The position numbers and the translations under genes were made by a program. Of a DNA stretch of 64,000 nt, positions 3,063 to 62,194 are shown in pieces; within the stretch, counting starts at the first letter, position 1; each line of letters starts with the position of its first letter. The notes beneath the pieces were generated by a model. The model was not told the DNA's origin. It saw nothing but the letters and a program-made list of their open reading frames with translations, and searched no databases. Source of the DNA: Nereocystis luetkeana (taxonomy: Eukaryota > Sar > Phaeophyceae > Laminariales > Laminariaceae). The stretch covers positions 6,131,661 through 6,195,660 of the forward strand of contig JARUPZ010000030.1 in the NCBI GenBank assembly GCA_031213475.1, given 5' to 3'.

Positions 3063-3170
3063 ACGGGGGACCATATTAAGTAGGACCTACCAGGTACGAT
3101 ATAGACAAAAACCTATATATTTCGATATTTTTACTCACAATATTCGGTCCTATTTACTATGGTCGCCCGT
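3063..3170 (+). mobile_element. MITE family A, copy 1
   Basis: Starts ACGGGGGACCATATTAA and ends TTTACTATGGTCGCCCGT, with the family's AT-rich core (CCTATATATTTCG...TTTTTACT). Its left half carries a TACCAGGTA motif that the consensus lacks. Confidence 0.85.
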
Positions 3171-3570
3171 AAATAGCTCGTACTGCCGGTTGATACTGGT
3201 ATGGACTACGCAGATGCTGCACAACTGCTCATGAGAGCAGGTTAGGATCTAATAGTTGATCTGTATGACCTATCTGTAGATGATCTATCTATACCCGACG
3301 GGTGAAACAAAAAAAACGCAGCGAGCACAAGGCAGAAAAAAAAAACACGCACGCGCTGAGGAAACATAATGAGAACAAAAGAAATAGTAGCGCGGTTTTT
3401 CCCTTTTATCCGTTGGTGTTGACCTCTTCGATTGACTTATTCCCGTTTTTTTTGTTGATTGTGTTGTTGTGCCTTTTCCTGCTTTGAAGCTCCCTCCGAT
3501 GCTGGGAGGCTGCCTGCTGCGTGAGGATGCTTGCTAAGGATGCTTGCTTGAGTGCGATCGCGATAGAGGC

Positions 3571-3616
3571 GGACGGACGGGCGGACGGGCGGACGGACGG
3601 ACGGACGGACGGACGG
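3571..3616. repeat. GGAC/GGGC tetranucleotide tandem array
   Basis: About eleven units of GGAC with occasional GGGC. The arrays of Arg/Pro or Gly/Arg codons it creates in several frames are not real genes. Confidence 0.9.
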
Positions 3617-4914
3617 CCTCTCTTCTCCTTGCCGTCCAGAAAGACTGCTGGACAAGCAAAAGCCTGCTGAATAAAGAGCATTTCGTCTCCCCGATTTCAG
3701 AAAATATATACCTGGTAACTAATTTACCACAAAAAAACAAACGATGTAAAAACTATTCATACGATTTTTTGTTTTGTTTTATGATCGTATAAATATATCG
3801 ATATATTTCTCTCTAGCTCCATGCTGATTGCTTTACTCCCTCCTTGTACAAGGAGCAGGGGGGTTGTTAGTGTCCGCTCTTTCTCACGTTATTGATTCGT
3901 CTGCTTCGAGCATTTATGGGCCCTACTTACTTATGCCTCTTCACTGCTGTTGGAACCATCTGACGCCGCAAAGAGCTCGTACTACACGTGTACCCGGTAC
4001 GTACTTGCAAACATATATATGGAAAACGCAAAAGAAATGCGAATGTGTGCCGTAACTACTATAAGTACTTGTGACTTCAGTAACCAACTTACTGCAAGAA
4101 GAAAAATCACGCGACCAATATATATGCAAAGGAGTAGCCTCCTATCGTAGAAAGACCCCCGCCCCCTCCTCCCCGCGCCTGATTTCTCGCGAGACAACAA
4201 CAAAAAGAGCATGACGGCGGTGTGGTACGCCCTCCGAGGGACACACCGGGGTGAAGGCTGAAGCGCTCACACTTCATCGCCCACCCTGATGGGCCCCGTG
4301 CCTGCCGCAACCACCAGCAGCAGGAGGACTAACTACAGCGCTATACCACGGCACTGCAGTGGGCCATGTTCGCTCCTCTCCTTTCTTTTGCTCTTAACCC
4401 TCTCTTAACTACTTCAAAAACGACCCTACCCTGATTCCGAGTACTTCGTCCAAAACATAGAAAAACCGCGGGTGGTTGGTGCAGTTAGTTCTGTGTGTGT
4501 TTTTTTTGTTTCAGTCTGTCTCGACTCCCTGCTTAACAAGTCGACTATTGACGACGAGTACTACTGTGTACTCGCAGCAGCTTTCTCGGCGAGCATGCAT
4601 ACCGCACGATGTAGAGACGCGCCTATGGTTGTGGTTGCCGCGGCACTCGCGCCGCGAGAAAAAGGGTCACACCAAGACCAACCAACATGGATGACAACAA
4701 GCTGAAGGTTTGTTGGCGCAGTAAAATCAAAACTCGTCGTCACCGGTTGTAACGCTGTGATCGCCGGCGACGCAAACATATCTGGTACCTACTAGTATGT
4801 ACCCCACCCGCCTGTCTGTCCGAAGATGCAGCGACCGTTTGGGTCTGAGCAGGAACAACCAAGTGGTCCTTGCATATGCGCACGTAACAAACAAACAAAC
4901 AAACGAACTTTAAC

Positions 4915-5023: not shown

Positions 5024-5294
5024 TATGCTACCAGGTATACTATAACCGCTCGCCCCGAATATCACAAAGAACTATTAATAAATAAACAACAAACAGCAAA
5101 CAGCAAAAAAACAACAAACTTCGTACGATACACCATCAGATACGAGGTGAATGCACACAATAATATCAGACAGGCGGGGCATCTCTCCACGCGAGCTCTG
5201 TGCGATCGGAGCACAACAAACAACGTTGCCGTCACCTACTACGTATTGATAATATGATCGTCGAAAAGACAAACAACCCTCGCGAACGACACTA

Positions 5295-5376: not shown

Positions 5377-6488
5377 ACACTCACACTCACAAACAAAACG
5401 TGTATACTACCGTAGTAGTAGTATTTGCATCTGATATAAATAAAGCTACCGTTAAAGGCTTGATCGAACCTACCAAGCCGCGTTTCACCAGTTCCTGAAA
5501 AGGCTACGTACAGTCACATAGGCTAGAATTCACACCAGGTGTAAGCTACCAAGCGTTTCGCCAATTTTTCGAGTGTATCGTATCATACACACGAGCGTAC
5601 AATACCAGTAGCATGTTTGAACAGCTTGGTACCGAATAAGAAAATTAGCTCGCGCGACCTCAACCTTTTTTAGTGCTACCCTATACATGAACCTACCGTA
5701 AATCGGACTGTAATTCCAAGTGTTTTTATCACAATGGGAGTGCTCTCCTTAAGGCCAAAAGGGATTATTGAGGGTACGACCATTGCGCCTACCGCCGTCT
5801 ACAACAACAGTTGTGATGCTGAACCGAACTACACGAAAGTATGCCCACTTCTCGCTCTACTGCTACCTGGTACTTGACAATATCTCCTCCCTCCTTAGGC
5901 TTCACGTGGCGTATGCCTGTCAGTCCTCGCGAGGGAGCTGTGACTGCATAGCAGGAGCTGCATGAAGTAGGTAACTTTCGTTCCGCATGGCGTACACGTC
6001 AAGCATGGCGGTGCCGCCCTTAGTTGGAGACGCGTTCTACCATCATTCGCAAAAAAACGACCGGCTGCTTGCTACAGGTAGGTGCTCATCAGGTAGCCGT
6101 TCGTCATAGATGGGTGTCGCCCGTGTCAAAATAACGCTCTCTCTGAACGGGAATGTAAGGACCGTTGGGTGTTGATATTGCTGCTTCAACGGTCGTTAAA
6201 TATCCGTTCACAGAGCGGTACACGAGCGAGGACGAACAACCTACAACTTGTGCACACCACCATGTACTACAACCTTTAGATTCTTCAAGAGGTTGGAAGC
6301 TAGCCTCCTCCTCCTCCTCCGCCTTCTCTCATCATGCAAGTCGTTCTTGGCTTGGATTATTCACCGACTTCCTTCCAGCGACGCTTCGATTGATCGGGCG
6401 GTCGGATGTCGGCTCGGCTTGCCCGGTGTTGGCTGTTCGCTTGACTTGCGACGTTGGTGTGGGTTGGCCGGTGAGGTCGATTGAGCTC

Positions 6489-7588: not shown

Positions 7589-7628
<40 letters not shown>

Positions 7629-10600
7629 GGATAAGGGTGCACCTCCCACTATTACGGGGGACCATATTAAGTACCAGGTACCTGGTAGGACTTCTGATAA
7701 ACACAAAAACTTATATATTTAGCTATTTTTACTAACTATATTTGATCCTATTTACTATGGTCCCCCGTAATAATGTATCTTGAGGCTACCATACTCCCTA
7801 GAGGAGATCTATACTATTAGTGAGTCATTGGTACAATTAGTGAGTCGTTAGTACCACGTACGAGTAAGTCATTACTTGCAGCCGTACTAATGGTAAGTCA
7901 TAGTACTATTAGCAACTCATTAGTACTATTAGCAACTCATTGGTGCTACTAGTAAGTTACCCAACACCTGCCTTGCGCATCCCAAAGGCCAACGTCAAGG
8001 CATACTATTAATACAGTAGCAGATATATCTATATAGAAAAATAGTGTGTAACACAAACTACAGTCCTAGGGATAGCCTGGCCTAAAGCTTCTACCTTCCT
8101 TATCGTATAGCAAGCGTCATACTATATCCCCGGTATACCGTTTTATGGAAAAATACAGCAGCTAAGCACAGAGTGAGTGTCTCAACCCTTCTACCACTCG
8201 TAGCTATCCTGTGGGGGGAAAATGATAATCACCTGGTAGTAGCAGTCGGCCATGAAGGTGCATTCGTGCCCGGCGTGACAGCACGTGGACCCCAAGAAAT
8301 TGTTACCACCGCACTGCAGCCAAAGGCGTCGGACCAACGGAGGCACCGGATGGCACCAAGGCGAGGGGAGAAAGGGGGACGGGGAGTCGGGAGCGGGGGG
8401 GAGAGGGGGGGGGGGGGGGTAAGGGTTCGAGCGGTGTTTAGTTTTTGTTGTTGTGAGAGTTTGCAAACCCTTGAATTCCTGCGCGGCAACGAAGTGGGGA
8501 TCAACAGTCTGCTCGAGGCATAATTGGGCTTGGGCTGGACAAAAAGTTGTGATGACCCACCCTGTTTGATGGCTGACACCGTCATGATTAAGGCACTGCT
8601 GTGCCTAGTGGAAGCTCGAGTCAACAGCAAACAGCATTTCAGATTGACCTCCGAAGGCACGGTGCTTACTTGCGTTCCTACGTGACCCATGGGATACAAT
8701 ACCGCAAAAATGATTCCAGTGGCAATACAATTTCAACCAATTTCTTCCAAAAAAAAAAAGTGTGGGAGGAGAAGTGGAGTTCCAAAGGGATGGATGGCCT
8801 TAATATGTACCGTGGTGTCATACAAGGGGATGCAACTTTGTGTTCGTAAGCATCCACCTGTTCTTAGATTAATATCAATAGGTACTTGGGCCCAAATGAG
8901 CGGGGGTGGGGTTCCAAACGAGCTAACTGTTTGTCGTATGTACCGGGTGTAGTATCTAGTATCATTCAAGGGGACGCAATTTGTCCTAAACCCAACTAAA
9001 CAAGCTCAAGTAAACAAGCGCCGAAAATACACACCTATGCGTACGTTGGCCACGGTAGACTCGGCACTTTAGCGACAGCCGGCACTACTACGGGGGACCA
9101 TATTGAATAAGACCTACGGTAGACACAAAAACCTACACATTTCGCTATTTTTACTGACAATATTTGGTCCTGTTTAATGTGGCCCCCCGTAATATATACT
9201 CCGCGCACTACCGCTCTGGCGAACCCCGTGTATCTGCGCCAATCGACTCCACGGGCACTTTGAGAGGGAAACCGGCACGACTGTTACACCACCCGCACTG
9301 TAGAGGGACCACCACTTCTATATATTCCAGTACCTGCTCGTAGGCCTCGACAGGGTCGGCGCACTCTCCCTCGCTGCCCTCATTGTCGCCTCCTGCGCCC
9401 GCCGTGGTGTTACCCCCCACCCCTGCATTCAGCCGTGCAAGGTGCCAGGTACCCATGAATTGGTTATGGAGCGAGCGACCCGAAAAAAGAGGCAGCAAAT
9501 AGAGGGCGGCTTTGTATGGTGAGCTTGAGGCATGCGTGGGGGGGCAAAAAAAAAAAAAAAACACACACACACACACACAACGAATAGAGAGCTTTTCAAG
9601 GTTATAGCTTAAGGCATGCGTGGGGACAACATCCTTTTCTGAGTAAAAAAAAGATGAAACAAAGAAAGTGTTTGATGTCATTATTATGCTTGCCTTCCGA
9701 CAGCATAGCGTAGATGCCATTCCAATATGAACCGAATATACAGACTTTCCGAATAATACTTCCGGACCGAGTGGTACTGTGTACCTTGGTACGTAATAAT
9801 AGTGCATACACCACGGCTCGCTCGTACTGTTTATCCCCTTGCGTACTGGTACTGCCCGTGCGCAAATATTATTATTTCGTACCAGGTACGTGCTTGTTTT
9901 CTCCCATGGAGGCGTGTTTGTTTTTTGTTTCAGCCTGTTTCGGCGGCTTTCCACTGCCTAGACTTCAGGGAAAACGAGCTAATGCGAGAACATCATCATC
10001 ATCATCATCATCATCGCCATCACCATCACCACCACCACCATCATCGTCCTCACTATCATCATCTCTTCGCCATCATCATCAGCCCAGGGGATATGGTGCA
10101 CATCTAACAAAAACGCATTAGTTTGACGTTTACCAGATACCAGGTACATGATATGATGCTGCGTACTCTTACGGCTGCAGCCTTACGGGGATCCACAATT
10201 ATCAGGACCCAAAATGGTGAATATTCCTATACACGAAAGCCATATTTTGGGTCCTATTTTGTTACGGTCCCCCGCAATAGTATTACGGGGGACCATATTA
10301 AATGGGACCTGCGGTACACACAAAAACCTATATATTTCGCTGTTTTTACCTACAATATTTGGTCCTATTTACTATGGTCACCCGTAACGGTGGACTACCG
10401 GGTATTAGTTTACTATCAGTGTCCTATTAGCGCTCTAGTAGTGTACTGGTGGTGTGCTTGTAGTGTGCTAGTGATTTCTGTGCTTATCGAACACAATGGA
10501 CTGAAAGCAACAGCCGTTCTGACCTTCGGTGGGGCCTGACGGCGATTTAGTCTCCTCAGGGCTGTCCTCAGTAGATGCCGGTGCTTCAGTCGTCGGTGCT

Positions 10601-16600: not shown

Positions 16601-19600
16601 TTGTCTAGGGGGCGAGAGCTTGCCGGCGGCGTCCTACCTTCTTCTCCCAAACCTGAAAAAAAAACTATTTCTTGCCTTTCGAGACCGGTCGAGAGATTTA
16701 GTCATCTATTTTCTGCACATCAGCGACCAATTGTGTTTTTATCATACGCCTGGCCAGCGCCCGCCACATGACACCGACCATGGTGTGAACACAGTGACCC
16801 TAGGGTGGGTGGGTCGGAGCCCCTAACGAGCGCACCCCGTTCAGAGTTCATGACGCGGTCATTGGATTTGTCGATCGATGTCTGTCGAGGACTCGGAATC
16901 TCGCCGCTTCGGACCAAGCATACGTCTGAGTTTTTCCGAAGCCGATATTGGACCCCAACATCGGCCCCGGAATTGTTTTTCGTCGGGCTTTTCTAACCGT
17001 TTGGAGCTTTCAGTTTTAAGAATCGTGCTCATCATAGCAAAGCTTGTTCTGCAAAAAATTGGTGGATATCTGTGAAGTTCAAACTTTTAATGGAATTTTT
17101 GCGTTTCCATTGGCATAATAGGTCTTAGATCAGGTCCTTTGCAATGATTGCGGGACGTTGGGCAGCATGGCAAAAAAAAAACTCCTCATCCTGAGGACCG
17201 CACTGGCATTTTTTAATTTAGGATACTACCCCACCCCCTGTATGAAGTATATGTACGCATACATACATCAACAGCCAACGGTACATCATGAGATCATCCC
17301 CGCACGAGCCAAAAAGCTGTACGACCCGATCCGATTTTTTATAAAATCTAAAAAAATAACGTCGGTCACAACTTCAGAACAGAACAGGATTCAAGATCAT
17401 GTCTGTCAGGGTCGTTGGTTGGTGACTATACCCCTCCCTGTGGTCTACTGAGTATTTATCTACAGCGGGGTATACAACGGCAGCTTGAGTCTCGGATTCT
17501 TTTCCAACCGGAAAGAAGGCGGGCATGCGCTGCTGTGCTGTGCTCAGCCACTGTGCTGTGCGCAGTGCGGCCTGGATGGAGGGAGAGTGGAGGGGGGGTG
17601 CCTGCTCTATGTGCCTCTTGCTATAGTAGTATATCCGAGAGTGAAGTTGGAGAAGTACGAGAGGGCGAAAATGTCATAGATGGGACGGAAACAAAAAAAC
17701 AAAAACGGCGGCCTGATGACAAACGCGCTGCTATTATTGGTACGCTTCCGTGCGACCGCCTGGGGTATTGGGGTGCATGTATGATGCCGGTCACCTGGTA
17801 CGTATTAGCCCGACGGCGGGAGCATAGTGTGAGCGATCACGGTGTGACTATGGTTGTGATCATGTTGTGAACATGGTGTGAGTGTAGACATGTATGTGGT
17901 AGGGGCAGAGGGGGCGCGAGAAGGAAAGGCAAACGCACTTCAACGTAACTGTGTAGTAGCAATACAGTAGAGGTCGTCAAGGGTCACCTTACCCTGTTGT
18001 TTAGGACTGGACTCCCGTTTTTGGGGACAAATTTCTTGGAATTAGAGTCTCACACATACATGAGTACCACTCTGTTCCTAAATGAAATATAATGACCATT
18101 TTTCCACTAACATTCAGACAAAACATAAATTAGGTACAGAGAGGTACGTACAGCAGCACCACACACAGCACTACTACCAGGCACATGACTAGTATTAATA
18201 GAGGTTACCTTTGTCGAACACCCAGCGCAGAGGGTAAAATCCTTCGCCGTACTCGGCAAGGACGGCAGGGTCAGTCTTCTTCATTGCCCGGTCACGGGTA
18301 TCGGCGGGTCCACCAGCATTATAGCAGTGAGGACAATCTTCAAACCTAGCGGTGCCCCTATAGATTATTACACATCAACCATTTTGAAATTGGTGTACCA
18401 CCCGGTAGAATGTAAACGGAACGCGCAGCGGGAGGGTGGGCGGGCGGGCGGGTAAGAAGCAGCGGAGTTGTTCTGGCGATGCCCACGGGACGAAGCAGCG
18501 TCGCGCGGCGCGATGACCAGGCGACGCTATTATATTTAGCATATAACCAGCCAATAAAGGCGAGTACTTACAGAAGTACGTATGCAGCAGCAGTAGCCGG
18601 TTGCCCCGGGGGTTTTAAATTTTGGTTACCCTCGAAGGCGACTACCAGGTACCTATTTAACAATAAAATATTTGATCATGGAGTTTGCATCTAACCGAGG
18701 TCGGAGTGTGAATGTATTTGCGAACATAAATGGAATCAACCGCTGAGAGCGCCTATTAATAGTAGCAGCGTGGGTAGGCGCAATAATTGCAATTCGGGGC
18801 GAGTCGACAAGGAAGGGAAGAAATGGCTGAAGTGTTCTGACGATGAAAAAAGCAAGGCATGAACTTTATTGGAGACGGGGGAGAGGAGCCTGCTATGTGA
18901 CCCCGGGTCTGAGTCACGGCTACGTATCTACGCATACTGCAGGAGGGAGATAAATGAGCAGAGGGTGCGGACTATATAATAGATGGTGGGATGAAAAAAA
19001 GAAGATAAAAAGGAGAAAACAGTATGATACGGCAGTACAGACAGTAGTAGTAGTGCCTACGATAGCTATGCATATAGCCAAGTCGAGGACGGCAGTGCGC
19101 TCATCATATCGAACTCGCTTTGGCATCACTCGTACGCATATACGACGACGGTATGCTTGACGCTCGGGCACACTGGCACGGATACAGCACCGTGACGATC
19201 ATCCAACGGCCATAGATCCAAAATCTACCTGGTACACATTATTTAGTAGAATATTCTGCGCATAAAAAAACACACTCTCATCAAATAACTCCGCTTGCTC
19301 GATCTGCTATTAATACTACTATTAATATTGATGTAAGTAACGTCTCCTGTACGACCCACCACCACCACGGCGGTTCGGTTCACGTACACCCACCCGTGTT
19401 ATCTCGGCGGACATCGATCGAGCTGCCCCTCGCCGCGTCCTCGAGGTTGTTCGCTTTTTACGCCGCGGCGCAGCTGGGCAACTGTCTCAAGTCTCAAGCG
19501 ATCTCAGAGCTTCTTGTAAATTGAGTCTACTGGTTGGTATAAAATAATACCGCTGTACTGACAGTAGTACGTGGTACGCACCCCGGCATGATGATGATGA

Positions 19601-21119: not shown

Positions 21120-21560
21120 ACGGGAAGAAAATGTATGTGTGTGCTCTTCACATTAAACCGCACCGACCGTTCTTTCTACCCGTCGACATCCCCAGCACAA
21201 CCAGTCCGTGTTCGTGCCGTTTCTTCAATCCTAGAAGAGATACAAGTTCTGTGGTCAGAAAGCTACGCCACAGAGATACCACGTTTTTTTTTCTGCCCCG
21301 GAGAGCGAGAGGAAACCCCTGTCCACACTTATTTCTCAAGTTTTCGTGTACCGGTTCGAACCCGGTTCGTTTCTTCCACCTTGGTCGGGCCTGTCTGTGG
21401 CCGTCATTAAAGTGTGTGGTTTACTCCAGAGATACTACGTTGCCACGTACTACGTTGCCACGTACCAGGTATGCAGTAACAACAGCATGGATGGGCAATG
21501 CAATCTGCAATGCCATGTCAGCATACTGAATACGATAGGCACGACATGCCCATTCTATGC
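21120..21560 (+). repeat. Dispersed repeat, copy 1 (partner at 33880-34140)
   Basis: Shares CACATTAAACCG, TTCTACCCGTCGACATC, CACAACCAGTSYGTG, TTCTTCAATCCT, CTACGCCACAGAGATAC and ATGGGCAATGCAATC with the complementary strand of 33880-34140, in the same order. This copy is longer because of extra blocks, including two tandem TACGTTGCCACG units. Unclassified, probably a transposon remnant. Confidence 0.75.
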
Positions 21561-21856
21561 AATAGAGAAACGAAAGGAAACTAAGGAAAACAAACAAAAA
21601 CAAAGAAGACAAATCGAATGAGAAACAGAAAGAAAGAAAAAAAAATGTAGAAGAAACAAACTTGTCGTGCCCCCCCCGCAGACGATGTAGCAAACACTTG
21701 AAAAGGACGAAAAAAAAAAGAACAAAGAAGGAAAACACCACTCACTGCTTGCAAACAGAGTAGGACAAAAGAACCAAGGAGAAATAACAAGGAAGGGGAG
21801 AAAATAACAGATAAACCACATTGTAGTATATATACCTGGTACTTTTTTGTTTTCAT

Positions 21857-22990
21857 GCTTGCCATCCGACAATGATGTGTATAGTGTTGTTCTAATAAAC
21901 GACTATTCATGACAGAAAGTGAAGAACTTTCCAGAACAAAAGCGCGGCAGTATCCTACGACAAATCAGAACTGATGTGACGCTCATGAAGACTATATATA
22001 CTACAACCAATATCCCTCCATCTCGTCCACCAAAAAACGACCACTCCCCTCCTTAAGCACCCCCGAAGAAGCATCTACCAAAAACCCGCTGTCCATCAAA
22101 ATGGCTGGTTTATTACTGCTACACGCATGTTTCAACGCGCAGAAGGTCGTGCTCTTAAACAATGTGGTTTGCGTGTGTCAGCTCGAAGCTGGTGTGGAGT
22201 AGCGTGTGTCAGCTCGTGGCTGGCATACCTACGCTCAGATCCGCTTATCGATGGCGGATAAGACACAATCTGGAGAGGGCAAACGCTTATTAAGCTGCAG
22301 TTAAGCAAACTTGTATGTGTAAGCTTCTCTGTAAGATAAAGAGATTTTGTTGGCGACTCCTGGCCAGTGTTAATTGATTGTGCTCAGCAGATAGATGATG
22401 GGCCGATGATGATGAGCAGATAGATGTAGAGTGAGCTCATGTGGGGGGGGGCGATGCGTGCTTGCGCTTGCAACAAAAGTAACAAAAAACTGAAAAGATA
22501 CCACCCCAATCAATCCATGACCCTAGCCGGTAGCCAATATTGTTACTACTCCAACAGCTCAACTGCTAGGGTGCGCTCAAATCAATACCCCGTGGCAAAT
22601 CCCGAACCTTATCGGTTCTAAGAGGGATACTGGATATGACAGTCCCGCTACATGTACACATGTACTTCCGTACGTACGATACAGTGCATACACTTTATCA
22701 CATACCTGGTACCTGGTATCAGTAACGACACAGCTTGTAAACTGTTGTTTGTCACACATTCAAGCTACGTACGCACTACTTAAAGTAACTACAGCAACAA
22801 TACGATACATATCAAACAAGGCTGCTTGTGGTACATATGCTACGCTATGTATACCAGATGACTCTGTATTATCAAGTAACGACAGATGGTTACCTAAAAG
22901 TATCATCTCCAATACGTGCGGTGTTCCTCGTCTACACTGCTATCGGTAGTGCCTAGGAGAGAGTCCCTGCCGTCTCGCTGTTCCTGCGGC
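21857..22990 (+). repeat. Segmental repeat copy A, interrupted by ~760 bp
   Basis: From CTTGCCATCCGACAATG through GCGGCAGTATCCTACGACAAATC and CCCGCTGTCCATCAAAATGG to CGCGCAGAAGGTCGTGC (22152), it matches copy B (23567-24045). The match then resumes at 22915 (CGTGCGGTGTT...CTACACTGCTATCGGTAG). In copy B these two parts are adjacent, so 22153-22914 is an insertion flanked by CGTGC on both sides. Confidence 0.8.
22153..22914. mobile_element. Candidate 762 bp insertion with 5 bp CGTGC target duplication
   Basis: Defined by comparison with the uninterrupted copy B. Left edge TCTTAAACAATG, right edge ATCATCTCCAATA; no inverted ends, no TG...CA ends, no coding potential. Inside are a direct repeat of GCGTGTGTCAGCTCG near 22170 and 22203 and a double TACCTGGTACCTGGTA. 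Type of element unknown. Confidence 0.6.
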
Positions 22991-23093: not shown

Positions 23094-23566
23094 TATTACC
23101 TGGTATAACATTTCATGCATTCATTCAGGCTGATTCAACCCAAACTTTGTCAGACAAGAAAGAACGCCGAGCACAATATCTCATACTTGTCGAGAGTGTC
23201 ACAAACAGCAGTACATATATAACAGAGGCAATAAAGATAGATATAGATACATACTACGAGTAGATAGGGGAGATATCATACTGACCGCGCCATGTGAACA
23301 GTGGAAGGCGGTGACACATCCAGTTTTTTTATTGAGGTCTTACAATATTCGGGAAAGTTATGAGTGATCCTTGTTGAAGATCATGCTGCACATTGTCGGA
23401 TGGCAAAAGAAATAATAATATATATATACTCGTAGGGCTGGCTGTCCCGCAAGCGGCGAAAATGCGGCCAACCACACGCGGCCCATGGGAAATGGTGAGA
23501 AACACCACAGGACATGCGTTTCCGTATGATTTTCGTCCAAAAGGTGTATGTCTATTCATATTTCAC

Positions 23567-36561: not shown

Positions 36562-36593
<32 letters not shown>

Positions 36594-42900: not shown

Positions 42901-45900
42901 TTGCAACAGTCGGCGCCTCGCGTAGTCCTAACCCCGGTAATGTTAACGACCTGGCCTATCAATAGCTTGGACACAATACAAAAGTTCACGGCAGATACAT
43001 CGCTGATCTGTGTGATCTGTATGATATAGCTCACGTTGACGGGTGGGAGCCCTATAATATGCATGATTGAGGACATATTCCTCGGGGGGGCTCTGTACTA
43101 CACTGACCCTGCACAGCACCTCGTAACGATAGGTTTGGGTCTAGATAATCTATCTGACCTATCTGTACATGATCTATCTGTCCGACGTGTGGAATGCTTG
43201 ATATTCCGCACTCAATCCCTCGTTACATATTTATTCCTTGAATTCTCCCATGCGGTCCGGTGTTCGGGTTTATTATGTAGGGTTAGAATAGGGCCTTGGA
43301 CTCGAACGTATTCACACCTTGGACTGATGAGACAGATCATCTACAGATCATCTAGATCATTTGGTTACCCAACTGCCGTTTTATCACAGACTGTACAGGA
43401 TTTGCATAGTATAGATCCAACCCAGGAAACATGTGCTAGATCATGCCGATTATACGGGTCCCACGCGGCAACCTGAGCCAGATCATACGACATCGGGAAT
43501 ACATGATCTATCTGCCTTGAAAGATTTAGACCACCGAGTGGGAATTGACGAATTTCTTCCAGTTTGTCGAAGAAAGGCCAAGGTCTATATACACATATAC
43601 CAGAAGTATACACACAGCCCTAGCGGACCTTGTTCGTGTTGATTGTTTTCGTTTTTTTTTGTCCGTTTCCTTGTCTTGCCGCCCTTCTTGTTATATGGCG
43701 CTTTCCTTACCTCAGCGACCTTGCCGCCGTCGCCGTTCCTTGCTGCAGCTGCCGCCTCTACGGAGAGCACGGGCTGATCATCGAGACGTCGACACACTTG
43801 GAGGACATCCCCATGAGTGATTATTTTCAGATAGACGACCGCTGCGTGGTTCAGCCTGGCCGGGACGGTGACAGCGCAGTGTGCGTCGACGTGGAAGTGG
43901 AGGCAAGCTGGGGGGGGGGCTGGGCTGCTAGCAGCACAAATATTTCCTTTTTGTGGGGCTTTGGGTTAGGGTCTCAAAAGCTTGTGTTGTTGGGTAAGCC
44001 ATGGGCCGAGGTTGCGAACAGGTGTTCCAGTGAGGCCATGATCGGCGCAGTATATGGGGTCCGCGAGATTTTTCTTTGAAGAGCGCGGGTGTGGCAGGTG
44101 TAACCGTTCGCCCGCGGCTTGAACGACCCGGGCTTGGGTTGGCTGCCCGCAACGGAGGCTTTCGTTTCTCGTTTCATGATATACGGCACCCCGGGCACCG
44201 CTCAGGCGACGAACTGAACAGAGACGAGTGGGTTGCTCGGAGACAGATTTTGATTTTGGTGTGATACGGCACCCCGCACCGTTCAGGCGCATAAAAAATA
44301 GAAGAGTGCTTGTCGAAGTTGACTGCTACCTCCAAGAGTCAAGCGTACGGCTTTCCAGCGGCGGTAGACATCGTCGTACGTGAGCGGTTGGCGTTAACTG
44401 TCGGTTGTCAACCGTCTATATCTAGGTGTCACCCGCGTTTGCTTGGTCAGATTAAGGGCATGCTGTACAGCAGTTGCGGCTACAATCAGTAATCAAATTC
44501 AATCCCCAGACTTTAGCTAAGTTTCTGTGGTAAATTGAAGGCAATGCTGTTAATGCGGCTATATATATTAGCGGCGTGTGATGCACGTGATTTAGTCGAA
44601 TCGCTGTGTTGTGCTTCTGTAACCTGATCGCCCGCCGTCGCCCGCCAACATATGTGCCGCTTTTTGGAATACTCCCGTGTACGAAGCGCAGATTAAGTTC
44701 TTCAAGAGTACCATGTTTCGCAAGACGATCGAGGCCAAAAGCCTTCAGGAAACGCGGGAAGTTTGGGAGTCTTTCATCGTCATGGCAAAGAGCGCCATCC
44801 AGATCAGGCAACCCGGTGAGTAGCTGCGAGTAGCTGCTACGGGATATTACGCGATTGCCTTGGACAGCCCACCGGTGGGGTGGGGAGGATATCGGAAGCG
44901 GTCGATCTACATGATGGGTCTAGCTGTGTTGTTGCGTGGTTGTTCCTGCCTCCGCCACCGTTACCGCGTGGTGCCAACCATTGCAGCTGTTGTCGGCGAC
45001 AGGAGGCCGTTCCGCCATTGCGCCTGCCAAGATCGTACATGTGGTAGATGAAAACACCGTGGAGTGCGTATCTGGTAGGAGCTTGCACTGCCACGGCTTC
45101 CTTTGGCTACTTCTGGACTGACACAAACGTCTGCCGCCGCCTCTTGTCTTCTGCGTCCGGCATCGAGACGTGACGGGGTGCTCCTCGGCCCGACAAAACT
45201 CCGTATAGACCCTGGTTATGTTCGTACTCCGACTGACACCGCTGCCCTATTAAATAGTAGCTTGAATCCCCCAACATTTTCCTGCTCTTATGTAGTATGT
45301 ACCACTATGTCCCAAACATTGAGCAACGTTTATATATTGATATGTACCTGGTAGTGCATACGATCCTCGTATTTAGGTACGGGTTGGTATCATGGTATCA
45401 TACAGTTCCAGTTTTTGGGCGAGCTGCAGTCGCGCGTCACCCGTATAAACTGGTCCGATTTTGTTTTCAAAGCGCGATGCTTCGTTGTTTGTCTTTTTTG
45501 CCTGTGCTCTCGCAGCAGCGCGATCTCGTCAGCGCCTCGACGCGATCCCCATTTCCCGACCGACCTCGGTACCTGAACACACCCGCGTTATCCCGTTGTT
45601 TCCACCCCCCCCCCCGCCCCCCCCCCCTCCCCCACTGCCCCTCCTCCCTCTCCCCCCCTCTTCCATGTTTTTTAGCGATGCTTGTACGGCCCTCCAGTGC
45701 AGGTGCAGAGTCCGACGACGAGGGCAGGGCGCGTGCCACCCGCGAGCGTATCCGCGAACGCCGGAAGCACCGCCACCGAAGTCGAAACCACCCGCACGAC
45801 CAGACGCAGGGGTCAGCATCGTCGGCTGCTTTAGCGGCGCCAAAGGACGGGTCGAGCCGGCCGAGAGCGAAGTCTGCCGCGCCGGCAATGCCGTCCCGAC

Positions 45901-47956: not shown

Positions 47957-52747
<4,791 letters not shown>

Positions 52748-55288
52748 GTACCGATGTCAAGAAATGCGAGTCCTGCTCTTGCTGCTGCTGCTGCTGCTGC
52801 TGCTGCTTCTACTCACGCAAGAACCTGCCTGACACTTGGCTCGTCTTTTTGTGTCGATGTTTGTGGACAGCAAGCTTTCGGAGCGTTTTACTGCCGTCAA
52901 TATTCGCAGAGAACAGGTGGCACAGTTCGTTCACTTGCAACCGTGGGTAGAAGGCACACACAGCAGCAGCAGCAGCAGTAGCAGGTCGGTGCGGGGGCCT
53001 CGTCCGGTTTAGCAGTTTTCACAGCCCCCGTCTGCCTAATGCCGCAAATACCAATGGAACTCCTTTGTTGGAAGAAAATGAAGAAATACAGCAGTACGAG
53101 GTCGCTTTTCGCCGCGCAGCAGTACATGCCATTCCCACCAGCGGGAGCTTCAGCGTCGGCATGGGGGATAACGAGTACTCGGGTCCATGTGCCTGCCTGT
53201 TGAACTGCTTCAGGGTCTGGAGAGAACGAGAATCTCTCCGTCGATATGCGGAGTTTTTGCGAGCAGGTGAAGTACGTAACAAAAGGCCAAACAAAGCGTA
53301 TATACGAGGACAGCAGCAGCGGCACTACGAGTCGTAGCAGAACCTGGCGTCCGTGTGAGGGCGGAACTGCTTCTGAGGTGCACGTTTCGAAAAGATGATG
53401 CCGATCACTGCTATTAGCTATTACTACTGCTGCCGTTATGTATGTGTGTCGTTCGTCACACAGCAGTGTGTACTGAGTGTTTTGTCAAAGGTTATCCTGA
53501 CGATTCCAAGATTTGCCGAATTTCTCTTCGCTCATCATGTGAGCAATGTGCGCAATCGGTCGGCCTGCGCATTGTGAGCCTGTTTTCTGTTGTTGCTCGT
53601 CCATGTGCGGTACATATCATATATGCATGGGGTTGGAACTCGGGGACCAGAATCCGCCCTCTCGGTAGTTACATGAAAAGATAATTCGTGTTGGAGTCTA
53701 ATCTGCATTGAATGGCACACGCTCGCCAGAACAACATACCTGTAACTTATTATACGAATTAGGACTACAAAATTGACTTCGCGGTCGACGCCGACATCGG
53801 CACGACAGTAGTCGCATCACCACATGCATCGAGGCGTGGACACCTGCTGAGGCTGTTTCCTACCAGGTACGCGGTATGCGGTTCGATTCCGAGCTTCAGA
53901 TTTGTATCTTTCGACACCGAAAAGGAAAGCAGATGCTCTCGTATGCAGTGAGGCCACTTCCTATGCAGTCGGATTTGCTGTCAGTTGGAAATGGTGCTAT
54001 CAGCACGTTCGCACGAGCTTTTGCCGAAAATGCGCCAAACTGCTGTTTCTCGCCTCAGAATGAGTTGGACTTTTCTCCAAGATCTACCTAGAGAAGTTTC
54101 CCGCTTCTCCAGGTGCCCAGTTACAGGAAATCACCTTCGGTACTGTTCCGATCCAACTGGGTCAAATACGATTACGATCAGGGATCGGATCGGAAAAAAC
54201 GTTTTTTCCGATCCAATCGGGTATTGTGATCGTATTTGACCCAGTTGGATCGGAAAAGTACCGGAGGTGATTTCCTGCAACTGGGCACCTGGAGAAGCGG
54301 AAAACAGCTCTAGATAGGTCTTGGAGAAAAGTCCCACTCATTCTGAGGCAAGAAACAGCAGGTTCGCACATTTTCGGGGCAAAAGCTCGTGCGAAACTGC
54401 TGTTTCTTGCCTCAGAATGAGTGGGACTTTTCTCCAAGACCTATCTAGAGCTGTTTTCCGCTTCTCCAGGTGCCCAGTTGCAGGAAATCACCTCCGGTAC
54501 TTTCCCGATCCAACTGGGTCAAATACGATTACAACCCCCGATTGGATCGGAAAAAACGTTTTTTCCGATCCGATGCCCGATCGCAATCGTAGTTTTGACC
54601 GAGTTGGATCGGAAAAGTACCGAAGGTGATTTCCTGCAACTGGGCGGCGCATGGAGAAGCGGGAAACAGCTCTAGATAGGTCTCGGAGAAAAATCTAAGT
54701 CATTCTGAGGCGAGAAACAGCAGTTTCGCACATTTTCGGGGCAAAAGCTCGTGCGAACGTGCTGATGGCACCATTTCCAACTGACTGCAAATCCGACTGC
54801 ATAAGAAGTGGCTTTATTAGGCCACCTCTTAGGCCACTTCTTATGCAGTCGGAAACTAGGATCGAAAAAGCCGGTTTCCGATTGGAGACAAAAAAAAGGC
54901 AAAATCTCATGCAGTTGAAAAAGCGCCTTTTCAGTAAAAAAAAAAACGATTATGATTTCCAACTGGACCAGACTGTCGAAAAAACTGAGATTTCCGATCC
55001 AAATCACCAGTCGGATTCGGGCATCGGAAATGTTAGAAAGTCCAGCCGCATACTCGTACGAGTATCACACACCCACACAACAACACGACATAGTATGATA
55101 CGACACAACCCCACACCACAATACCGGCGACGCTGGCTTGGCTGCTGTCACTTCTGCTGTTGCTCGGCTCGGGTCAGCGTGATATATCCTCATCTATGTC
55201 CGTCAGTAGCACGTGACAGCACCCGATGCCCGCAGTGTGCGGTATCGATGAGGACCTTTTGCCAACTGCTGCGCTGGCTGTAGCTTAG
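52748..55288. other. Upstream region of the helicase: CTG/CAG tracts and fold-back array
   Basis: Directly upstream of the helicase ATG is a (TGC)n run (52780-52806) and further on an (AGC)n run (52961-52981); both would lie in or near the 5' leader. The rest to 53900 shows no gene. The inverted-repeat array at 53930-54870 is listed separately. Confidence 0.55.
53930..54870. repeat. Alternating inverted-repeat (fold-back) array of four ~180-240 bp arms
   Basis: One unit is read forward, backward, forward, backward. Symmetry centres: 54200/54201 (CGGAAAAAAC|GTTTTTTCCG), about 54376, and 54557/54558 (CGGAAAAAAC|GTTTTTTCCG again). Each arm holds GTTTCTYGCCTCAGAATGAG, TTTTCTCCAAGA, CCGCTTCTCCAGGTGCCCAG, GGAAATCACC and GATCCAACTGGGTCAAATACG. 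A fourth hairpin, GACTGCATAAGAAGTGGC against GCCACTTCTTATGCAGTC, closes it near 54820. Related shorter blocks occur at 55600-55830. No gene is in it; it resembles fold-back elements or nested MITEs. Confidence 0.88.
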
Positions 55289-57051: not shown

Positions 57052-59210
57052 GCCCAAGACATCCTCTGGAGGTAAGTTGTTTGTATGAAGCCAAACAATC
57101 CACGACCTGTGCGCGGTTGACGTTACTGCTCTGTGTTCGCATCCATACGTTTTACATGGCGTCGAATACAAAGCATCCCTTCAATCTCACGGGCATTGCC
57201 GATTGTTTAACTCAACCAGAACACATACTCGTAGGCGTCATGATGTTTGCTTCTTCGCACCGGTATGAAGGAATACTTCAGCATGGCGACGAGCCACCGG
57301 TACAACGCTACGCGCAGGCAATAGTGAATAATACTATATTCTAAGCAGGATGCCGAGGGCACGCCGGCGACACCAAAACCGCGAACACGCCCGAATGACC
57401 TCTTCCGTATAACGCCGGTTGTGAACAGACGACGGAATAGAAAGGCGGCAGTGACATCAGCGACAGCAGGACATTGCACCCTTAATATATATATGAAGCA
57501 AAATGTGGTCAAAGAGGTTAGGAAACGTTGGGGCCCTGAACGCGACCAGGCATGCAGTAGCGCATGTGTTCATGATTAATTGACACTCTGGTTTTGATGC
57601 TGTGTTCAGGCGATCGATTTAAACGACGAACTTTCACATTTGGCTTCGGGACCGGCAACGAAGCGACGGACGTGCGGCTTAAGGCAGAATTCGATACCGT
57701 CCTGGCGTGGAGGAAAGAAAACGAGGGGGATGGCACCTCGTGGCACGAGATCGACCTCAACGATGTCAAGACCATAGAAGCCAAAGGTGAAGATCACCCG
57801 CTCTATTGACAGTGACAGTTGCCCTCTCGGGATAGGTGATAGTTTTCGTACATAACCCCTTTGGTACTGCAACCGTTTTTTTTGGGCAAACTACATGGAA
57901 TGAGTGTAAGATTGGTTTTCGCAGTAGTAAAAGTGTTGAATATACCTGGTAAGTAAATACAGCGTGTCGGATGCTGCAAGATGATAGCTCTTCCGTGCTG
58001 GTGTTGCAGCATCGGCAGGTTTCACGTACGGTATCCCCCCTAAGAGCGGGTACTTTTCAAGATGTTTGCAGCACCACGCCGACGTACCTGCAGCATTTCG
58101 CTATCCTTTGCGCCGTCAATTTTGCTATGATACGAGACGAACGAGAGTGCAAGTCTATTATGCATGAAGTGATAGAAGGCTCCGCGCATATTTCGCGCGG
58201 CATCGTCGAGTCACAGAAACGCCTCCCGGTCAATCGAAGCTCCTTTTGATCCTGGAAGCCGCATGCCTGTTCACTTGGATGCATTGCTTGCTTCTGGCGT
58301 TTGTCTGGCAACGTATAGGACTATCGAGTCTGGTGATGTCCTCAAAAACAGGCGATCTTTTGTTGGAGTTGGAGGCCGCCGACGAGAGCGTTCGAGACAA
58401 ATGGGTGAGTGACTCGGTTTCGTTTAGTTAAATGGTGGCTTCATTCCATAAACTCAAAGAACACTTCGCTCTATTTTTTGCTGTTGTAGTTTGCACAAGG
58501 AGTGTTTTGTCTGTTGTGAAAGCTCTCGAGTAGCTTCTCGTTGTAAATACCCGGTGCCACAATCGATAATATGACCGTCGGCACGCATCGAGGCCGCCGT
58601 GAAATAATACAGTTATGATGCGAGCGTGAAAGTAAGTACGCACGTCGCGCTGGCTCGCAAAAAAATCATCCCGTCCGTGTAGTGGCCGTTTGCGCGCAAC
58701 AGGCGGACCCGGGTTGTAGCTTGTCAACGCTACGACCACAGCGACCGGATAAGGCTTAAACTTGGTGTATCGAAATCGAAGAGAGGGTGCGGAAAAACAG
58801 CCAAAGGCACACAAGAACGACGACACCAAGAGCGAGGTGCATTGTACAACACCATATGTCTACGTGTAACACTGCGCGTAGCACCGGATAACATGGAGTT
58901 TCCTGCATACCAATGGACGTCGTCCCACTATTGCCAACTGTCGTCGCCCCTTGCTTTTGTTTGCGTTGACGATCAGGTGGAAGCGCTGAAGGCGTTATTG
59001 GAAAACCTGAGACTAAACCCGCAGGCCAGGATGGCGCAGAAGAGCGTCAAGGACAGGGTCAAGGAGCAAGCGCAGCGCCAGCGCCATGTCGCGAAAAGAA
59101 CGATAGAGATGCAACAGCAGAAAAAGGACAACGATGCGCGCAAGGCCCGGTACCTGAAAGAAACGGGGGGAATGCAGTACACGGCGATAGCCATGGCGAA
59201 CCGAAAATAA
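57052..59210 (+). CDS. PH-like domain protein with basic coiled-coil C-terminus (4 exons, 5' end uncertain)
   Basis: Exons: 57052-57073 (MPKTSSG start), 57610-57786, 58352-58404, 58977-59210; phases agree, 161 residues. The joined middle part reads VLAWRKENEGDGTSWHEIDL, NDVKTIEAKG, DLLLELEAADESVRDKW, VEALKALLENL: strands followed by a helix containing the invariant Trp, as in the second half of PH or PH-like folds that bind lipids or proteins. The C-terminus is a Lys/Gln/Arg-rich helix ending ARYLKETGGMQYTAIAMANR. The first PH strands are not seen, so exons upstream (perhaps 55289-55398) probably exist and the ATG at 57052 may be internal; an in-frame stop lies just before it. Function unknown beyond this. 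Confidence 0.65.
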
Positions 59211-59483
59211 GGCAATGGTAGAAAGCTGCCGCGTTTTGTGGTCAGCTGTTTTGTGTACTTACTAGTTGAAATCGCCTCTTGGGCTACTTTTTATTAATAG
59301 CCACCCGCCCGGGTGGCGAGTTGTTTTCTCGCCCAAATACTGTTGGACGGCATTTTACGATGAATGCGCCAGACTGCGATACGTCTGGGGCACTACTTGA
59401 ACTACTGTACAGCGGTCATCACATGCGCAGATGGTTTAAAACCACGCCGCCGCACGCACAGCGCTATAGCAGATGGCTCGGTG
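59211..59483. other. Short convergent gap between PH-like gene and HSCB
   Basis: Only 273 bp separate the two stop codons, so the 3' untranslated regions must be short or overlap as antisense. No clear AATAAA signal is seen on either strand. Confidence 0.6.
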
Positions 59484-62194
59484 TCAACCCGCAGGAGGCC
59501 TTGAGCGTTCGTCCTCAAGTCTATGCATGACCCGCCGCGCCTCATCCTCGATGCGGTGGAGGTACCTCAGACGCACAGCAGCGTCGTCCAGCTCTTCTCT
59601 ATCACCCCCCGCTTTCAACACCTTGTCCATCCCGCGCAAGCATTCGTCTACTGCCCCTGTCGCTTCCGTTAATATCCTCTCTGCTTCGTCCTTAGACTCG
59701 CACTGCTCTAAGGACTCTCTCGTTTCCATGATCTCCATTAGGAAGTCTGGGGGGACGGGTGTTTTATCCTCGGCCCCTTCCTCCTCTAGCGCTCTTGATC
59801 CCCGCGTACGCATCTGCGAGTCGTCACGAAGACAGCTGAATATTGTCAGTCTGATGCTCTCATTTGTGTGCTACCCTACTGGCGACTACACTACCCAACA
59901 GCACCCAGTACGGTAGGAGTTGATCGTCAGCGGCATTTCTATGGCGGCCCGACCAGCGAGCATGTTGAGCCACACATAAATAATCCCCGACAGCTGTAGC
60001 GTGCGATCGAAGGGGAGAACATTGTGAACACGTACGTGCAAAAACATTGCGACGGCAGGTGCAGAACGTCTGCCCTTCAAACAGAAATACGAAAGTACTG
60101 CTGTCAAAAGTACTGGGTTACGGCCGTACAACAGGTGCATTTTCTCTGGGGCGATTCCAACGCAAATATCGATACCAATCATTCTTGCGGTCTCACCAGA
60201 TACTTTACGCGCGGCATCGGGCGAACCAGAGTTTGGTATGCTTTATTTGCCGTGGCTGAGTTGGCAGCAGAGATCGCCTGCTCGTCCTTGCATTTGCAGG
60301 CGAATAGGTCCTGGGTTGGGGGAAAAACAGCCGACTTGAGGGTTAACACTACACAAAATGGCTGGAACAGCTTCAGCGATAAGCACAGACCCGCATCGTA
60401 TTGTAGGACAAGACGGCATCGTCTGCACTAGATTCTCAGCGAATCAGTGCCGGCAGGCAAGAAGGAGGCAAACCTGCGTGATAATTCAGCAGTAGTAGTA
60501 GTCCGTGCCTGGTATATTACAGTATTGCCACCGTGCGTGGATTCGGTTCAGCTCTGAAGCGCACTCGGAGGACAGCGACTAGTTGTTGTTGTTGTTGTTG
60601 TTCTCACATTAACTCACAATTCAATGCAGTCCGTGGTCGCAGGACAGGCTCCAATAACTCTGGAGTGGAAGAAATACCTCAAGTAAAAACAGAGGCAAAA
60701 AAAAAAAAAAAAAAAAAACAGGCATACGCACTCCACCACTGCGGACACCAGGGAAGCAAAAAGGAGACTATTAATAGAAGACAAAAACCTAAAAAAAGAA
60801 GATGAAGCTAAGCAAAACAAAAACAAAAACAAAACTAAAACAGACGCAGATAGCAAAACGCGAAAAAAAGGCAAGGCAAAACGGACCATACTAACAAAGA
60901 CACAAAGAGGTATGCTGCAATGACATACCTGGTACGGATTATCAGAGATCGTATACGTTAGCTATTAATACTGCAATCATTATGATGGCACGCAAAAGGC
61001 ACTCGTATAAACAAACAATTAGGGCTGCTATCGAGCTATCGTAGTACAGCACGTTGTGCGTAGAGGTAGGCTCATTTTTGTGAAACTCATCAGAACTTAT
61101 TACCCCACGTCACAAGAGTCTGCAGTGGTTCGGGGTTCGGGGCGCGTACCAACTTCCCCGAGTACTACAATGCGTCAGTGGCGCTCAAGATACTGCTGGA
61201 CTACTGCCCGAGACTACCTGGCACAACCGCCGGACATAGTGAGCGCCCGCAGTTAAGAATCATTACGTAAGGAAAATCGTTGTCCCCCCCGAGTTTTAGG
61301 TGATACCAGGCTCTTATTATTTATTTATTTTTCGGATTCAGGGAGAACAAATAGGCTCAGATCGGCACGAATAAAAAAAAAAAATGGGACAGATCAACAG
61401 CAGTGGGACCAACTCTAAATCCTACCTGGTATACAATAGAGTTAGATCAAAATCGGAAAGAAGTAAGCCATCGAGCCTGGACACCAAATAGACGTTTCTT
61501 ATCACCGGGCGCCACTGGACGGCAGTATGGCAGGTACCAGGTAACTGGTATACCGGCAGGAAAGTAGAACGCTACTCACAGGATGGAAGGCGCGCTGCAT
61601 GTTTTTGAATTGTCTCTCCACTGCCTGGAGGTCCAAAAACACAGAAGGGGGCGAGCCCAGCATCTCGAAGTAGTCCAGACGGCCGTCAAGCGGCTGCACT
61701 GCGCCGCATTCACAGAAGAACTCTCGCTCGGCCACCGCCAAGCTGCACTTCCAGCAGCTGCTGCCGTCGTTGCCTTCAGCCCTGCCGTTGTCGCCGACGA
61801 CCCCCTCGCTGCCGGAGGCACTTGCAGTAGAATTTGCAGTAGGACTTGCAGGATTTGACGCCCTAGTCGACAGAGATCGCCAAGATGGTTGACGCTTTCG
61901 ACATGTTGGTGCCTCGAATGGTATCAACATCCGTCTAACATCGACGGTACAGCAGTCTTGGGCAGACCGGGGCATCGGCTCCGACCATATAGAGGCGTTG
62001 GCTCGGTGTTTCCTCGGCGGCGGAGACCGTGGTTGGTGTCCCTGCGAACCGAGCTGGGGCAGAGCAACCTCGGTGGCATTCCTCGTCGCTCCATGATGGT
62101 GAGTCAAGGATGGAGCTCCGCCGATTCCGAGGTTCGCACCGTTCAGCGCACGCAGTGCCCCCCTTGCCAGGTTTGGGCACTTTGTAAGACGCAT
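59484..62194 (-). CDS. HSCB: HscB/Jac1-type mitochondrial J-protein co-chaperone for Fe-S cluster delivery (3 exons)
   Basis: Brings the Fe-S scaffold (ISU) to mitochondrial Hsp70 and triggers its ATPase so that the cluster is handed on. Exons: 62194-61580, 60310-60197, 59813-59484, all phase 0, 352 residues. The N-terminus (MRLTKCPNLARGALRALNG) is basic and helical like a mitochondrial targeting peptide. A zinc-site remnant CWKC...FFCECG (147-163) precedes the J domain DYFEMLGSPPSVFLDLQAVE, FKNMQRAFHP. The Hsp70-activating HPD motif is split by intron 1: His-Pro end exon 1 and Asp starts exon 2 (DLFACKCKDEQ...NKAYQTL). Exon 3 holds the ISU-binding HscB C-terminal domain (PDFLMEIMETRESLE, RLRYLHRIEDEARRV). 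The second zinc pair is CxC, not the usual CxxC. The first intron carries the (CAA)n-tailed repeat. Divergent from the FKBP gene. Confidence 0.92.
60583..60862 (-). mobile_element. (CAA)n-tailed short retroelement-like repeat, copy 2
   Basis: Inverted partner of 7350-7627; the tail appears as TTG repeats at its left and an internal A-run of 19 at 60699-60718 has grown in this copy. In HSCB intron 1, antisense in direction to nothing else of note. Confidence 0.72.

What the first reader, a model, noticed from the sequence alone, without database searches (positions are those of the whole stretch)
3088..61541. A 9-mer, TACCAGGTA, is scattered about 33 times through 64 kb
By eye I count 33 exact TACCAGGTA/TACCTGGTA sites (for example 3088, 3709, 5029, 9879, 10138, 18642, 21464, 27204, 30138, 33087, 39268, 45344, 50605, 53861, 57947, 60927, 61533), against about 0.5 expected for one 9-mer on both strands. 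Neighbouring bases differ, so it is not one long repeat. All sites lie in introns or gaps. Near-misses such as GCCAGGTAC are also common. It could be a very small mobile unit, a footprint left by a transposon or repair process, or a protein-binding site. The core CAGGTA also looks like a splice donor.
Basis: partly seen in the sequence, partly recalled or inferred. Interest (0 to 1): 0.85.

Follow-up and report, generated by a model that had tools for sequence, protein, structure and literature searches.

The report
Genome-wide 7-bp transposon scars at TA
A brown-alga-like genome carries about 180,000 copies of a tiny 7-letter insertion that drops into TA sites, most likely scars left when a now rare or missing jumping gene cut itself out again and again.

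Summary
TACC[A/T]GGTA occurs 33 times in the window (0.41 expected) and 182,395 times in the 465-Mb genome, against 1,744 for the reversed word. The host looks like a brown alga. The 9-mer is a 7-bp insertion, CCWGG+TA, into an existing TA: of 32 sites testable against paralogous copies, 16 have a copy with a bare TA at that point, against 2 of 159 control TA-N5-TA sites, and those 2 trace to the same unit. Allele lengths step by 7 bp. The centre is A/T, rarely C/G (182,395 vs 10,882). Flanks show a mirror-symmetric target preference. Mismatch counts fit neutral decay of about 7% per base, not a conserved binding site. Best explanation: excision footprints of a TA-targeting cut-and-paste (Tc1/mariner-type) transposon with ends CCAGG/CCTGG cut 5 nt in. 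A comparable TATTAATA scar occurs alongside an identifiable MITE. No donor with CCWGG ends was found in the 333 kb examined, so direct micro-insertion by an unknown enzyme is not excluded.

The parts
3088..3096 (+). TACCAGGTA, single unit inside a TTACGGGG MITE copy (3059-3172); 5 paralogous copies in the sample have a bare TA here
3709..3717 (-). TACCWGGTA unit
5029..5037 (+). TACCWGGTA unit beside MITE copy 4915-5023
5864..5872 (-). TACCWGGTA unit
7672..7687 (+). double unit TACCAGGTACCTGGTA inside MITE copy 7650-7772; 2 MITE copies have a bare TA here
9880..9888 (+). TACCWGGTA unit
10138..10146 (+). TACCWGGTA unit
18643..18651 (+). TACCWGGTA unit
19226..19234 (-). TACCWGGTA unit
21463..21471 (+). 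TACCWGGTA unit
21833..21841 (-). TACCWGGTA unit
22703..22718 (-). double unit (two direct units)
23097..23105 (-). TACCWGGTA unit
27202..27210 (-). TACCWGGTA unit
29781..29789 (+). TACCWGGTA unit
30138..30146 (+). TACCWGGTA unit
30244..30252 (-). TACCWGGTA unit
32911..32919 (+). TACCWGGTA unit followed by what looks like a decayed second unit (CCAGGTtt)
32938..32946 (+). TACCWGGTA unit
33089..33097 (-). TACCWGGTA unit
33561..33569 (+). TACCWGGTA unit
33587..33595 (-). TACCWGGTA unit
39266..39274 (-). TACCWGGTA unit
40043..40051 (-). TACCWGGTA unit
45345..45353 (-). TACCWGGTA unit
50605..50613 (+). TACCWGGTA unit between two helicase ORF segments (50423 and 50815), presumably an intron
53861..53869 (+). 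TACCWGGTA unit
57943..57951 (-). TACCWGGTA unit
60926..60934 (-). TACCWGGTA unit
61423..61431 (-). TACCWGGTA unit
61535..61543 (+). TACCWGGTA unit

Best explanation
Each TACC[A/T]GGTA is a 7-bp scar (CCWGG plus a duplicated TA) left in a former TA dinucleotide when a cut-and-paste DNA transposon of Tc1/mariner type jumped in and out. Shown: the 7-bp gain at a pre-existing TA, its scale, the symmetric target preference, stepwise 1-2-3 unit growth, mismatch counts that fit neutral decay. Inferred: the element's ends begin CCAGG or CCTGG; excision is staggered so that 5-nt overhangs CCWGG remain on both flanks; the overhangs anneal through their C:G pairs around a central A:A or T:T mismatch, whose repair gives A or T. 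This is the Sleeping Beauty scheme, where footprints equal the 3-nt overhangs, stretched to 5 nt. Doubles and triples are later visits to the TA of an existing scar, which itself resembles the preferred target. The donor is rare, silent or lost in this assembly.
For: Empty sites: 16 of 32 testable sites have a paralogue with a bare TA, against 2 of 159 control TA-N5-TA sites (Fisher P 1e-12). Both control positives are TACCACGTA words directly abutting a CCAGG unit, and all 9 control sites whose paralogue is 7 bp longer, plus the one that is 14 bp longer, gained CCWGGTA units. Junction lengths 0 (33 pairs), 7 (19), 14 (3), other 4; copies whose aligned flanks are 95-97% identical still differ by the unit. 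In several multi-copy families only empty copies were seen besides the occupied one (8 for genome C1:397755, 5 for window 3088), so the change is a gain. In an indel census CCAGGTA was the commonest TA-bounded insert (9; the next, a bare TA, 7) and made 9 of 22 7-bp indels; inserts not bounded by TA were not tallied by sequence. Centre W:S 182,395 to 10,882. Among 32 TA-NN-(W or S)-NN-TA classes in 341 kb, TACCWGGTA has 135 and the next 11. Mirror-symmetric flanks: position -7 is A/T in 178 of 208 half-sites against 0.51 at random TAs (P 2e-25); also -6 A, -3 A, -1 R. Units 182,395, pairs 15,917, triples 1,689, about 9% and 11% per step. Internal comparison: TATTAATA (as CTATTAATAG 22,282 against 267 control) equals TA+TT+AA+TA, the expected 2-nt scar of the MITE with ends TA|TTACGGGG, 12 copies in the window; both prefer A at -2 and C at -1.
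Against: No full-length element with TACCWGG...CCWGGTA inverted ends was found in 264 kb; the one long inverted pair there (sample C1 19156-19489) is part of a larger inverted duplication that runs on outside the units. In 333 kb the 104 TACCWGG words not followed by TA show no target-like flanks (mean score -0.91, any TA -1.00; the real sites, which trained the score, +1.43). DDE_3 and mariner Transposase_1 searches of the whole genome gave 0 hits (the latter rang in no control genome either, so it is weak). Pogo-type DDE_1 gave 28 hits, but none of the 20 loci seen (1.5 kb each side) shows exact inverted ends of 11 bp or more beginning TACCWGG. A 5-nt stagger is longer than the 3 nt described for Sleeping Beauty and mariner. 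Excision in rice is mostly messy (8 of 94 perfect, all superfamilies, PMC4423477), whereas this scar is uniform. Same-centre doubles (40 of the first 59 listed, my tally) exceed the half expected from random resolution of the middle base.
Confidence: 0.66

Rival explanations
1. Direct micro-insertion: an enzyme (for instance a domesticated transposase) cuts TA targets and joins or templates a 5-base CCWGG plus TA, so that the 7-bp unit is itself the mobile thing and no large donor exists.
For: No donor seen in 333 kb; the product is very uniform; units are added one at a time.
Against: No known enzyme does this (recalled). The W-only centre and mirror symmetry follow naturally from annealed transposon overhangs. 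A comparable TT/AA scar in the same genome goes with a real MITE.
Confidence: 0.2
2. Functional palindromic binding site for a dimeric protein, kept by selection.
For: Palindrome with a W centre, high copy number, symmetric flanks.
Against: It arises as a 7-bp insertion with TA duplication. One-mismatch neighbours exceed background by about 7.7% per outer position on average and the centre W to S by about 5.0% (my arithmetic), as for neutral decay; in 264 kb each position has 7-21 mismatch copies before background, with no clearly protected base.
Confidence: 0.03
3. Remains of decayed longer repeats or microsatellite slippage, so the count is only repeat copy number.
For: Some sites sit in duplicated stretches and are shared by copies: of 18 single-single pairs, 14 are identical, 2 differ A/T in the centre, 2 carry another change.
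Against: Neighbouring bases differ from site to site. Copies differ by exactly the unit. Unit numbers fall to about 9-11% per step.
Confidence: 0.04
4. Splice-donor-like element (CAGGTA) or chance composition.
For: The CAGGTA core resembles a donor consensus (recalled).
Against: Half the copies are on each strand; changes in the TACC half are as rare as in the rest; shuffle, third-order Markov and reversed-word controls do not explain the count.
Confidence: 0.01

Closest known systems
Sleeping Beauty / mariner excision footprints (Tc1/mariner superfamily)
   Same: TA target and TA duplication; scar equals the overhang left by staggered excision (PMC7827188, passages read). The TAC(A/T)GTA form of that scar with its central mismatch is recalled.
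   Different: Here the core is 5 nt (CCWGG), not 3; about 180,000 intact copies; donor not found.
Stowaway (plant Tc1/mariner MITE) footprints
   Same: TA-bounded TIR fragments left after loss of the element; an insertion next to an older footprint is documented (PMC1925063, passages read).
   Different: Those scars are variable (1-4 bp TIR fragments) and described at single loci; these are uniform and genome-wide.
Ectocarpus Mariner-Tc1 families
   Same: Probably a related host; 17 families and almost 12,000 copies, mostly non-autonomous (PMC12477816, passages read).
   Different: 'Footprint' and 'excision' do not occur in the main text; its families were not compared here.
Paramecium TA-bounded IESs
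   Same: TA-bounded, Tc1/mariner-related DNA removed in tens of thousands (search listing with abstract starts only; details recalled).
   Different: IES removal leaves a single TA (recalled), not a CCWGG core.

Membership tests
Tc1/mariner-type excision footprint | Target TA duplicated on both sides of the scar | tested here: met
   33 pairs in which a paralogue has a bare TA; 16 of 32 sites against 2 of 159 controls, those two explained
Tc1/mariner-type excision footprint | Self-complementary core with a mismatch-resolved centre | tested here: met
   182,395 W-centred against 10,882 S-centred copies genome-wide; that the W comes from mismatch repair is inferred
Tc1/mariner-type excision footprint | Symmetric insertion-site preference around TA | tested here: met
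Tc1/mariner-type excision footprint | Donor element whose inverted ends begin with the scar bases | tested here: inconclusive
   none in 264 kb nor at the 20 of 28 pogo-type loci seen; the rest of the genome could not be read
Tc1/mariner-type excision footprint | Transposase of the superfamily in the genome, linked to such ends | tested here: inconclusive
   DDE_1 28 hits, DDE_3 0, Transposase_1 0; no link to CCWGG ends
Tc1/mariner-type excision footprint | 2-3 nt excision stagger | tested here: not met
   a scar core of 5 nt implies a 5-nt overhang under this model, against 3 nt in Sleeping Beauty/mariner; so 'works like', not 'is a standard member'
Functional protein-binding palindrome | Conservation above neutral | tested here: not met
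   excess of one-mismatch copies fits neutral decay
MITE or other small transposon | Terminal inverted repeats plus interior longer than the scar | tested here: not met
   the unit is 7 bp including the TA

The most novel reading that the evidence does not exclude
The 7-bp CCWGGTA unit is not a by-product: a cellular or domesticated enzyme adds it directly at preferred TA palindromes, making it a mobile or mutational unit with no donor element, roughly 340,000 events of which about 180,000 are still intact.
Probability: 0.2. Interest if true: 0.9.

Novelty: new variant of a known kind. Interest (0 to 1): 0.64.

Why it matters
If right, one uniform 7-bp scar marks about 0.75% of all TA dinucleotides in this genome (182,395 copies over about 24 million TAs, extrapolated from the density). 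That would be a readable record of cut-and-paste transposition at a scale that none of the papers listed by my searches describes (listings and a few passages only). It turns 'how often does a DNA transposon jump and excise over evolutionary time' into a counting problem, supplies many binary markers for strain comparison, and predicts an unusual 5-nt-stagger transposase that could be sought and tested. If no donor exists, it would be a new kind of mutational insertion.

Tried and rejected
Splice-donor reading: rejected (no strand bias; TACC half equally sharp). Binding site under selection: rejected (neutral-looking decay; arises by insertion). Long-repeat or microsatellite origin: rejected. 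Local hopping: not settled. Gaps between neighbouring arrays under 500 bp number 28 against 19.8 for random TAs (maximum of 500 draws 32), and 51 gaps are under 1 kb against 33 for an exponential, so there is mild clustering. Large inserts at paralogous junctions: one search gave 139 pairs with gaps over 40 bp; I read five junctions (four of these and one of 19 bp), which were tandem duplications or local rearrangement rather than an element; the rest were not read one by one, and many belong to one tandem family. Viral origin: the double unit occurs once each in 9 IMG/VR stretches, which I take as chance without a computed expectation. TATTAATA paralogue test: uninformative (9 empty pairs at 3 sites, control equally noisy). 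TACWGTA paralogue test: 3 empty pairs at 3 sites, control 19 pairs at 6 sites, not clearly above it. A PIF/Harbinger-type DDE_Tnp_4 family has 57 hits; the one 3.5-kb stretch read held a lone TACCAGGTA and only two 10-bp inverted matches, not at TA.
Full report
WHAT WAS CLAIMED AND WHETHER IT IS THERE. The window holds 33 exact TACCAGGTA/TACCTGGTA sites, at the stated places to within 4 bases; the mean of 100 dinucleotide-preserving shuffles is 0.41 and none reached more than 3. With words of period 1-3 left out it has the top over-representation score of all 9-mers in the window under a third-order Markov model (33 against 0.53; 5.4 under a fifth-order model). The window lies in a 465,085,209-bp assembly, G000:C30:6131661-6195660, and that genome holds 91,240 + 91,155 copies against 861 + 883 for the word read backwards. 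The host is eukaryotic and photosynthetic: an LHC-family search gave 68 hits, and one gene (L058) encodes a fucoxanthin-chlorophyll protein far closer to PDB 9ygv FCP17 (410.6 bits) than to the next entry, 6ly5 FCPI-12 (215.4 bits). From that and from recall of such proteins I infer a brown alga; no tool named the organism.

IT IS A SHARP WORD WITH A SYMMETRIC CORE. In a 264-kb sample (window plus C1:200001-400000) there are 112 copies, and no one-mismatch neighbour other than the complementary-centre word exceeds 13. Among the 32 classes TA-NN-(W or S)-NN-TA in 341 kb, TACCWGGTA has 135 and the next class 11. Genome-wide the centre is A/T in 182,395 copies and C/G in 10,882, the S control being 1,899. 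The flanks carry a mirror-image preference around the TA: A/T at -7 in 178 of 208 half-sites (0.51 at random TAs), A at -6, A at -3, purine at -1.

IT IS AN INSERTION OF 7 BP INTO A TA. I took both 60-base flanks of 125 unit arrays in 341 kb (loci L003, L004, L006, L038, L047 and L048 were dropped as overlapping or duplicate) and looked for paralogous places where both flanks align right up to the TA. 32 arrays were testable; 16 have at least one paralogue with a bare TA. The same procedure on 1,109 other TA-N5-TA words left 159 testable and 2 empty. Those two are TACCACGTA words abutting a CCAGG unit, and the control sites with a paralogue 7 bp longer (9) or 14 bp longer (1) all gained CCWGGTA units, i.e. 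they are the same events seen from the other side. Lengths at the junction of unit arrays were 0 in 33 pairs, 7 in 19, 14 in 3 and other values in 4. A looser earlier count that still held overlapping loci gave 29, 35 and 9 at 0, 7 and 14 bp, 16 pairs at other small lengths and 139 with gaps over 40 bp; the single pair at 21 bp there is not a triple unit. Window examples: site 3088 lies inside a MITE of which five copies have TA alone, and 7672-7687 is a double unit in another copy of that MITE. One local family shows two, one and zero units in neighbouring copies (genome C1:244425, C1:245029 and the copy near C1:245590). Copies with aligned flanks 95-97% identical can differ by the unit, so insertion went on until recently on that scale. 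An indel census that did not assume the motif found CCAGGTA in 9 of 22 7-bp indels.

AGE AND SELECTION. With one mismatch allowed the counts are 280,656 and 280,004, control 35,099 and 34,799. Subtracting the exact, complementary-centre and S-centred words, about 174,100 outer-position neighbours remain against about 62,600 for the control; the excess is on average about 7.7% of the intact number per outer position. The centre W to S excess is about 5.0%, near what neutral change at the same rate would give, since A to T is invisible there. Evenness between the outer positions was seen only in the small sample (7-21 mismatch copies per position, before background). This arithmetic is mine and assumes that the reversed word is a fair background. 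It implies roughly 7% mean divergence and about 340,000 original events. A conserved functional site would not decay like this.

GROWTH BY STEPS. Adjacent pairs number 15,917 and triples 1,689, about 9% and 11% of the step before, as expected if each scar offers a good TA for the next event; TACCAGG itself fits the preference (A/T) A n n A n R. At larger distances there is only mild clustering. Of the first 59 listed pairs, 23 are A-A, 17 T-T, 14 A-T and 5 T-A (my tally). The T-A deficit fits the -3 preference in direction; the excess of same-centre pairs is unexplained.

MECHANISM. In Sleeping Beauty and mariner the first cut lies three nucleotides inside the end, and after end joining the footprint equals the overhang (PMC7827188, passages). 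A 5-base overhang CCAGG or CCTGG would anneal to its partner through four C:G pairs around one A:A or T:T mismatch, which explains a uniform core and a W centre. The same genome holds comparisons. The MITE family with ends TA|TTACGGGG has 12 copies in the window, and its expected 2-nt scar, TATTAATA, counts 52 in 341 kb and, as CTATTAATAG, 22,282 genome-wide against 267, with the same neighbours (A at -2, C at -1) as the MITE. Pogo-type elements with ends TA|CAGTACCGG exist (L042), and TACWGTA (135) exceeds TACSGTA (58). The paralogue tests for these two other scars were not informative, so they support the picture by sequence and context only.

WHAT IS MISSING. No element with CCWGG ends was found: not in 264 kb by paired-end search, where the one long inverted pair belongs to a larger inverted duplication; not by target-like flanks of the 104 TACCWGG words without TA in 333 kb; not as exact inverted ends at 20 of 28 pogo-type hits; and searches for DDE_3 and Transposase_1 were empty. 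Zero in 333 kb allows up to roughly 4,000 copies genome-wide (Poisson, my estimate). A low-copy element that keeps jumping would leave many scars and few copies, but a direct micro-insertion enzyme remains possible (0.2).

LITERATURE. The 9-mer occurs in 119 papers, of which 20 were listed, and with 'alga' in 9, unrelated by title. Searches on footprints, mariner and brown algae listed nothing describing such a scar at genome scale; only listings and the passages named here were seen. Stowaway scars are short, variable TIR fragments, and reinsertion beside an old scar is known (PMC1925063, passages). In rice only 8 of 94 excisions, over all superfamilies, were perfect (PMC4423477, passages). 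The Ectocarpus TE paper reports 17 Mariner-Tc1 families and almost 12,000 copies and does not use 'footprint' in its main text (PMC12477816, passages).

VERDICT. Insertion of a 7-bp unit at TA: shown. Excision footprint of a TA transposon with a 5-nt stagger: most likely (0.66). Identity of the transposon: open.

Noticed in passing
window MITE copies 3059-3172, 4915-5023, 7650-7772, 9086-9194, 10281-10391, 11659-11767, 15336-15444, 28325-28433, 36062-36165, 36589-36699, 38968-39076, 39897-40005: About 110-bp MITE family with ends TTACGGGGGACC and TA duplication, 12 copies in 64 kb.
   Followed up: partly
window, CTATTAATA words; genome-wide CTATTAATAG: A second abundant palindrome (22,282 copies against 267 control) that fits a 2-nt excision scar of that MITE family.
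   Followed up: partly
L042 168-2399, also L039 and L045: Pogo-type DDE_1 elements with inverted ends reading TA|CAGTACCGGCC.
   Followed up: partly
L013 4418, 5022 and 5582 (genome C1:244418, 245022, 245582): TACCACGTA, the commonest one-mismatch neighbour (13 in 264 kb), abuts true units here and also stands alone in the copy without units; it may be a variant scar.
   Followed up: partly
first 59 double units listed: Same-centre pairs (40 of 59) exceed and T-A pairs (5 of 59) fall below random expectation; no full explanation.
   Followed up: partly
G000:C10:1013897, C12:5719694, C13:273115, C13:4457588, C19:8576567, C31:2436527, C1678:15911: Seven DDE_Tnp_4 (PIF/Harbinger-type) hits with equal scores and equal 294-aa open frames, suggesting a recently active transposon.
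   Followed up: no
window 151-1017: LINE-type reverse transcriptase ORF (RVT_1, E 3e-27).
   Followed up: no
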